Virus record (IMG/VR): IMGVR_UViG_3300048591_000147
Location: 250,001-314,000 of that record
Length of the DNA: 64,000 nucleotides
DNA from: a virus
Reading direction: 5' to 3' (one strand)
Positions 60,126 through 60,610 of this stretch are shown here, piece by piece. A program made the translations under genes and the position numbers. The stretch's first letter is position 1; each line of letters starts with the position of its first letter. The notes under the pieces are model-generated. The model did no database searches. It was not told where the DNA came from and worked only from the letters and a program-made list of their open reading frames with translations.

Positions 60126-60389
60126 ATGAATTTTTCAGAAGCATTAGTAGAAATAAAAAACGGTAAGAAGGTTTCAAGAGAAGGGTGGAATGGTAAGGGG
60201 ATGTTTGTATTCTTAGTACCGGGTTCTACCTTTAAAGTTAGTAGAGCACCATTACTTGGAATTTACCCAGAGGGTACTGAAATAAAGTATCATGCCCATG
60301 TTGATATGAAAACTGCGGACAATCAGGTAGTTCCATGGTTAGTTTCTCAGACTGATTTATTGGCTGATGATTGGGGCGTTGTTGAATGA
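60126..60389 (+). CDS. tad2: Tad2-family (DUF2829) anti-Thoeris-type protein
   Basis: 87 residues, the family length. Family signatures along the whole chain: FSEALVEIKNGKKVSREGWN, GKGMFVFLVPGSTFKVSRAP, LLGIYPEGTEI, YHAHVDMKTAD, VVPWLVSQTDLLADDW. Tad2 proteins bind and hide the gcADPR signal of type I Thoeris, and some relatives also bind CBASS cyclic nucleotides. Its ligand here is inferred. Combined with NAD+ salvage, it points to defence against NADase systems. Confidence 0.9.
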   Translation: MNFSEALVEIKNGKKVSREGWNGKGMFVFLVPGSTFKVSRAPLLGIYPEGTEIKYHAHVDMKTADNQVVPWLVSQTDLLADDWGVVE

Positions 60390-60610
60390 AAATATCTCCA
60401 GAGATGCTCGACCAATTCAAAGATGATAAAGCGGGATTGTTAAAGTTAATTAGAGAGATGGCACCTAAGAAAATTGCAGAAGAACTTTGTAGCGTCCAAC
60501 CGATGGATGGCATCGATTTGATGACTGTAGCGGACGCTTTAGAAAATTATAAATGGGCTACACCACATTGTAGGCTGGGTGTTCCATATAATGAAGAAAA
60601 TGATAAATAA
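60386..60610 (+). CDS. Unknown 74-residue protein coupled to the Tad2-family gene
   Basis: Start overlaps the tad2 stop (ATGA). Helical (ISPEMLDQFKDDKAGLLKLI; KKIAEELCSVQPMDGIDLM) with an acidic tail. No family recognised. Its coupling makes it a candidate partner. Confidence 0.6.
   Translation: MKISPEMLDQFKDDKAGLLKLIREMAPKKIAEELCSVQPMDGIDLMTVADALENYKWATPHCRLGVPYNEENDK

What the first reader, a model, noticed from the sequence alone, without database searches (positions are those of the whole stretch)
60126..60610. Tad2-family protein with a coupled unknown partner
The protein shows the DUF2829/Tad2 signatures from end to end. Tad2 sequesters Thoeris gcADPR, and some members also bind CBASS cyclic nucleotides. 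With NatV/NadV the phage would have two layers against Thoeris-type defence: removing the signal and refilling NAD+. The gene behind it overlaps by four bases and is uncharacterised.
Basis: partly seen in the sequence, partly recalled or inferred. Interest (0 to 1): 0.74.

Follow-up and report, generated by a model that had tools for sequence, protein, structure and literature searches.

The report
Tad2 sponge beside capsid-peptide mimic gene
A jumbo phage carries an ordinary gene for soaking up a bacterial alarm signal, and the small gene overlapping its end turns out to belong to a scattered, undescribed set of phage proteins that share a short piece with the phage's own major capsid protein.

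Summary
The interval holds two genes. 60126-60389 encodes a genuine Tad2-family protein (PF11195, E 1e-26; AF2 pLDDT 95). NatV- and NadV-like genes are present, 26-31 kb away. The partner (60386-60610, 74 aa) is not a Tad2 partner in any conserved sense: no such gene was seen in 80 Tad2 loci, Tad2 occurs in 1 of 20 records carrying partner-like proteins, and 14 of 80 gene pairs in the window share the four-base overlap. Its residues 18-42 match the Gol region of Gp23-type major capsid proteins (14 of 25 identical to the phage's own capsid). An HMM of 18 small phage proteins, collected through an unrelated C-terminal pattern, finds it at E 1e-8. The segment recurs in small non-capsid proteins of several architectures, some near replication genes, including T4-like coliphages. 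In T4, Gol binds EF-Tu. Most likely the partner is an independent accessory protein using a portable capsid-type peptide, perhaps to bind EF-Tu; the target is untested.

The parts
60126..60389 (+). tad2: Tad2-like nucleotide sponge, 87 aa
   Evidence: PF11195 E 1.2e-26; PDB 8v3e/9eib E 7e-24; AF2 pLDDT 95, Foldseek top 9eib TM 0.82
60386..60610 (+). partner: 74-aa protein with a capsid Gol-like segment
   Evidence: four-base overlap; top of 938 window ORFs with two HMMs
60437..60511 (+). codons of the Gol-like segment, residues 18-42 of the partner
   Evidence: Pfam Gp23 search places the match at G000:C1:310437-310511; 14 of 25 residues identical to own MCP, 40 of 75 bases
60617..60956 (+). 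permuted tmRNA directly downstream; neighbour, not shown to belong
   Evidence: RF04321 83 bits; tag ASNDAFYDVEYAQAA
61359..62063 (+). ClpP-like protease; neighbour, not shown to belong
   Evidence: PF00574 E 1e-14; phrog_1827 E 1.5e-60
29338..30411 (+). NatV-like nucleotidyltransferase + Nudix (NAD+ refilling)
   Evidence: PF01467, PF00293
32572..33984 (+). NadV-like nicotinamide phosphoribosyltransferase
   Evidence: PF04095, PF18127

Best explanation
Two independent accessory genes share an operon. Tad2 is a sponge that binds a TIR-made ADP-ribose signal (His-ADPR somewhat more likely than gcADPR) and so blocks Thoeris. The partner is a member of a dispersed set of small phage proteins that carry a 25-residue segment of the Gp23-type major capsid protein, the Gol region. 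I think it most likely uses that helix plus VQPM loop as a portable peptide to bind the same outside factor that binds Gol in T4, namely EF-Tu. Shown here: family membership of Tad2; the segment's sequence relationship; its recurrence in several architectures; lack of a conserved link to Tad2. Inferred: signal binding by Tad2; EF-Tu as the target (about 0.4 on its own); the purpose of such binding.
For: Tad2. Partner: HMM of 77 capsid segments hits it at E 7.4e-9, 30.9 bits, above the phage's own gp24-like paralogue at 17.6; best of 20,000 shuffles 11.8 bits (these segments came from VQPM-type scans, so that HMM favours the motif). Less biased: HMM of 18 sequences found by the C-terminal GYxPVSxxGLxWxK pattern hits the partner at E 1.2e-8, next window ORF 7.2 bits, own MCP E 5e-5, T4 gp23 E 1.3e-4. 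All 22 of 22 such frames carry [VA]QP at the same place, 19 VQPM. Recurrence: Ahp1, Atu_ph04, DLP6, Mendera, X1, Lazarus, Acj61 and 119 of 50,697 phage records for the T4-like version. Gol binds EF-Tu domains II/III (PMC3014915, passages).
Against: No binding, expression or phenotype data. The identification of this segment with Gol rests on recalled residue numbers; calls show only that T4 VQPM is at 114-117 and that Gol is 29 residues in a region of the first quarter. T4 gp23 itself is only 9 of 25 identical to the partner. In 50 VQPM-bearing capsids the most conserved 25-column block is another one. The full Gp23 capsid is found in 15 of 20 records with the small proteins, which would also fit a capsid or other phage partner. 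The AF2 model of the partner is weak, pLDDT 67, with no fold match.
Confidence: 0.45

Rival explanations
1. Capsid decoy: the small protein shows the conserved capsid segment early, occupying capsid-sensing immunity (ThsB of Thoeris, Lit-type or CapRel-type sensors) or shielding EF-Tu before capsid is made. Beside Tad2 this would block both sensing and signalling of Thoeris.
For: Staphylococcal Thoeris senses the major capsid protein (PMC11312562, passages); Gol activates Lit; CapRel is activated by a capsid protein (PMC9712102, passages). Small proteins lie in replication or accessory gene clusters in part of the loci.
Against: ThsB1 is thought to sense a hexameric siphophage capsid and its escape sites lie in the P- and E-loops, not obviously this segment; no link with Tad2 across genomes. 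Early expression is inferred from position only.
Confidence: 0.2
2. Capsid assembly factor: the peptide docks in trans on the phage's own capsid protein where the corresponding segment normally sits and tunes or delays assembly.
For: The segment is a capsid segment and the full Gp23 capsid is present in 15 of 20 records with such proteins.
Against: One 147 kb record (G010) has the segment and no Gp23 match, though it may be a fragment; recognised neighbours are replication or accessory genes, not head genes.
Confidence: 0.2
3. The partner is a functional cofactor of Tad2.
For: Four-base overlap and same operon.
Against: No Gol-like gene recognised in 80 Tad2 loci (many are short contigs); the downstream ORFs there show nothing like the partner; Tad2 in 1 of 20 partner-type records, about 25 kb away; overlap shared by 14 of 80 pairs.
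Confidence: 0.05
4. The capsid resemblance is convergence on a generic helix-loop motif.
For: Only 25 residues; Pfam score below gathering; low codon identity, 6 of 14.
Against: 20,000 shuffles do not reach the score; VQPM codons occur twice in 315 kb, in MCP and partner; HMM from an independent selection finds both; a different capsid block gave 0 of 62 closed small frames.
Confidence: 0.1

Closest known systems
ModTad2 (Myroides odoratus prophage Tad2; PDB 9eib, 8v3e)
   Same: Same family, length within two residues, best sequence E (6.9e-24) and best Foldseek match, TM 0.82
   Different: 47% identity in the Foldseek alignment; host, system and ligand of the window protein unknown
SPO1 Tad2 gp34.65 (PDB 8sme, 8smf, 8smg)
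   Same: Same fold and family
   Different: Lower similarity, 57.8 against 86.7 bits; it binds gcADPR
HgmTad2 / SptTad2 (PDB 8kbi, 8wjd)
   Same: Same family; WNGKGM and SQTDxxAxDW stretches shared
   Different: They carry the longer insertion linked to cyclic dinucleotides; the window protein does not
Gol region of T4 gp23 major head protein
   Same: Helix plus VQPM loop; 9 of 25 identical to T4, 14 of 25 to the phage's own MCP
   Different: The partner has none of the rest of the capsid domain
PHROG 21284 ('hydrolase'), 27117, 12830 ('major head protein')
   Same: Phage families sharing the same segment
   Different: Names look like mis-annotations; the partner matches weakly (E 0.019, 0.11, 2.4e-4)

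Membership tests
Tad2 (PF11195) | Profile match above curated cut-off over the whole domain | tested here: met
   93.5 bits against 25, residues 1-86
Tad2 (PF11195) | Tad2 fold | tested here: met
   AF2 pLDDT 95; 24 PDB matches at E<=0.001, all Tad2/AcrIIA7
Tad2 (PF11195) | Pocket stretches (loop b1-b2; b4-a3 loop and helix a3) conserved | tested here: inconclusive
   REGWNGKGMF identical to ModTad2 and S..D.LA.DW kept; invariant W21 N22 G23 W71 S74 Q75 D77 in 32 relatives; individual ligand contacts were not available
Tad2 (PF11195) | Binding of His-ADPR or gcADPR; tetramer | not testable with these tools
   needs purified protein
CDN-binding Tad2 subgroup | Long insertion between b2 and b5 | tested here: not met
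   87 aa; HgmTad2 residues 38-65 left unaligned
Gp23-type major capsid protein (PF07068), for the partner | Full capsid domain over cut-off | tested here: not met
   20.9 bits against 24.4, positions 8-32 of 376 only
Gol-like segment proteins, for the partner | Helix + VQPM segment outside a capsid | tested here: met
EF-Tu-binding Gol peptide, for the partner | Binds EF-Tu | not testable with these tools
   no complex prediction or assay on hand

The most novel reading that the evidence does not exclude
Phages of the T4 superfamily have turned the capsid's Gol peptide into a portable EF-Tu-binding module and spread it over unrelated small proteins; here it is placed between an anti-Thoeris sponge and a phage tmRNA and ClpP-like protease, so that one operon acts on immune signalling and on EF-Tu-delivered trans-translation.
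Probability: 0.2. Interest if true: 0.85.

Novelty: new variant of a known kind. Interest (0 to 1): 0.55.

Why it matters
The Tad2 gene adds one more member of a known sponge family, with a hint that its ligand is His-ADPR. The partner matters more: a capsid segment known for triggering EF-Tu cleavage by Lit recurs by itself in small proteins across jumbo and T4-like phages. That makes an old guess (that the Gol region of T4-like phages binds the EF-Tu of all their hosts) directly testable in coliphages such as ESCO10 and MN01, and it corrects misleading labels ('hydrolase', 'major head protein') on these genes.

Tried and rejected
Rejected: Tad2-partner functional pair; tmRNA as a general neighbour of Gol-like genes (0 of 19 loci; window only); ARAGORN misses the tmRNA. 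The tblastn hit in phage RAS14 was dropped because it is the capsid itself. No relatives of the partner or of the ClpP-like protein by direct search of viral contigs. No NCBIfam match for tad2, partner or 59876-60115. PDB sequence search with the partner gave one irrelevant hit at E 1.5. Genome contigs gave one hit with the C-terminal pattern, which lies inside an opposite-strand 651-aa ORF and is taken as chance. A search of six Tad2 records with the small-protein alignment was empty and has no positive control. Replication genes were recognised near 8 of 31 small-protein loci, so the replication link is partial; an earlier notebook entry says 9 and is wrong. Paper searches for the motif or a capsid decoy in phages found nothing of the kind (open PMC papers only). 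The original Tad2 structure papers did not appear in the searches.

Ascertainment: most motif scans ask for VQPM, so motif conservation in those sets proves nothing; only one search is free of this. Of the 41 frames, 34 were closed and 22 of those were under 250 codons, but several of these are chance or capsid-like. In one search a faulty expression for the C-terminal pattern was used; it was corrected. The structure alignments used 15 and 32 sequences of the larger sets fetched.

Full report
Observation. The window is bases 250001-314000 of a 314,956-base virus record. Two plus-strand ORFs occupy the interval: 60126-60389 (87 aa) and 60386-60610 (74 aa), overlapping by ATGA. Upstream lie a 79-aa ORF and the C-terminal half of an NAD-dependent DNA ligase; downstream a permuted tmRNA, a ClpP-like protein and a primase.

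Tad2. The first protein is Tad2-like by Pfam (93.5 bits, cut-off 25). It is the only PF11195 match in the whole record. It matches seven distinct PDB sequences, all of them Tad2/AcrIIA7: ModTad2 (8v3e, 9eib) at 86.7 bits, HgmTad2 63.1, AcrIIA7 60.7, SptTad2 58.7, SPO1 gp34.65 57.8 and 57.5. An AF2 model from 32 sequences has pLDDT 95, and Foldseek puts ModTad2 in complex with His-ADPR first (TM 0.82-0.83), with SPO1 Tad2 further down. PMC13299392 (passages) states that MoTad2 binds His-ADPR of type II Thoeris and SPO1 Tad2 binds gcADPR. I therefore lean to His-ADPR, but family resemblance does not fix the ligand. PMC12043709 (passages) ties cyclic-dinucleotide binding to an insertion between beta2 and beta5; the window protein is shorter there, so CBASS activity is not supported. 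Related sequences are common: 393 of 50,697 phage records at E <= 1e-3 and 405 stretches in viral contigs, of which the best 80 were kept. In 32 aligned relatives 34 of 87 columns are invariant. This is a new member of a known kind.

NAD+ genes. A nucleotidyltransferase-Nudix protein (29338-30411), a NAMPT (32572-33984) and a NADAR protein (41364-41894) are in the window. The two-layer idea is possible for type I Thoeris; for type II, whose effector is said to disrupt membranes (PMC12948488, passages), refilling NAD+ would not be a second layer against the same system.

Is the partner coupled to Tad2? The evidence says no. Fourteen of 80 adjacent plus-strand gene pairs in the window have the same four-base overlap. 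In the 80 Tad2 loci a scan for VQPM-like motifs found none in a Gol-like setting, judged by eye, and the downstream ORFs there show nothing like the partner; many of these contigs are short. In the other direction, of 20 records that carry Gol-like small proteins only one, Aeromonas phage Ahp1_CNU-2021, has a Tad2, about 25 kb away.

What the partner is. Residues 18-42 match Pfam Gp23 (E 2.8e-4, 20.9 bits against a cut-off of 24.4) and two PHROG 'major head protein' families. The record's own capsid gene is at 239702-240910. Over 25 residues the partner is identical to it at 14, to T4 gp23 at 9 and to the window's gp24-like protein at 4; 40 of 75 bases and 6 of 14 shared codons agree with the own capsid, so this is not a recent DNA copy. 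The DNA pattern for VQPM occurs twice in 315 kb, in the capsid gene and in the partner. An HMM of 77 capsid segments ranks the partner first of 938 window ORFs (E 7.4e-9); the best of 20,000 shuffles scores 11.8 bits against 30.9. These segments were gathered with motif-like patterns, which inflates the score.

The family. Pattern scans brought up small non-capsid ORFs with the segment. To avoid circularity I searched with a C-terminal pattern, GYxPVSxxGLxWxK, that does not touch the segment: 22 stretches. All 22 frames carry [VA]QP at the same place and 19 carry VQPM; 18 sequences are distinct. An HMM of those 18 gives the partner E 1.2e-8 (next window ORF 7.2 bits), other small proteins E 3e-24 to 9e-6, the own capsid 5e-5 and T4 gp23 1.3e-4. 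Named carriers include Stenotrophomonas DLP6, between the clamp-loader subunit genes, Xanthomonas X1, between two endonuclease genes, Agrobacterium Atu_ph04, unannotated, Mendera, Acinetobacter Lazarus and Acj61 beside dCTPase, Aeromonas Ahp1 and T4-like Escherichia MN01 and ESCO10, Klebsiella KP179 and Enterobacter CIP9. A tblastn search with the MN01 protein finds 119 of 50,697 records, some annotated 'hydrolase'. The segment sits at the N-terminus, in the middle or at the C-terminus of different proteins. As a control, a pattern for another capsid block, the most conserved one, gave 0 small closed frames of 62, against 3 of 56 and 22 of 34 for two segment patterns; these include some chance hits, and the second pattern was chosen to differ from capsids.

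Context. Replication genes were recognised within 4 kb in 8 of 31 small-protein loci; of those read by eye, others lie among small unknown genes. Full Gp23 capsids are in 15 of 20 records; of the five without one, two show only short sub-threshold matches and three none, and one of the three (147 kb) is long.

Mechanism. In T4 a 29-residue part of gp23, Gol, binds EF-Tu domains II and III and makes it a substrate of Lit (PMC3014915, passages). T4 VQPM lies at residues 114-117, inside the first quarter named there; that this is Gol proper is recalled. That review also reports the suggestion that Gol is the most conserved region of gp23; in my set of 50 VQPM-bearing capsids another block is more conserved, which tells against reading too much into conservation alone. 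A segment that is kept outside the capsid, in different architectures, suggests a shared binding partner. EF-Tu is the only outside binder of it known to me, hence the best explanation; capsid docking and immune decoy remain open. The AF2 model of the partner (helix 15-36, loop, helix 45-54; pLDDT 67) is too weak to decide.

The neighbouring tmRNA ends in a plausible tag, ASNDAFYDVEYAQAA, and tmRNA is delivered by EF-Tu (established knowledge, recalled). The position beside a Gol-like gene and a ClpP-like gene is suggestive but was not seen in 19 other Gol-like loci.

Verdict. The Tad2 part is ordinary, with a corrected ligand guess. The partner is the more interesting half, a kind of small phage protein that I did not find described in the papers searched, and it has no demonstrable link with Tad2.

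Noticed in passing
window 60617-60956 (+): Permuted tmRNA (RF04321, 83 bits) with tag ASNDAFYDVEYAQAA; ARAGORN does not report it.
   Followed up: partly
window 57098-59854: NAD-dependent DNA ligase split over two genes (57098-58213 and 59042-59854) around an opposite-strand HNH/homing endonuclease gene, 58169-59011.
   Followed up: no
window 41364-41894: NADAR-domain protein, besides NatV and NadV; a third NAD/ADP-ribose gene.
   Followed up: no
window 49900-50604: Thg1-like tRNA-His guanylyltransferase in a phage.
   Followed up: no
window 2687-3670: gp24-like second capsid paralogue with a degenerate version of the segment, IQSM instead of VQPM.
   Followed up: partly
L280 5460-5624 and its record (G009): The small Gol-like frame stops where relatives have Trp, and the record's Gp23 match contains an in-frame TAA; possible recoding or sequence errors.
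   Followed up: no
phrog_21284, phrog_12830; e.g. L400 850-1023, L086 119-898: Names 'hydrolase' and 'major head protein' for proteins that share only the Gol-like segment look like mis-annotation.
   Followed up: partly
window 59876-60115: 79-aa gene just upstream of tad2 with no significant family match.
   Followed up: no
L276 1158-1487 and record G010: 109-aa protein ending in a Gol-like segment in a 147 kb record without a Gp23 match.
   Followed up: no
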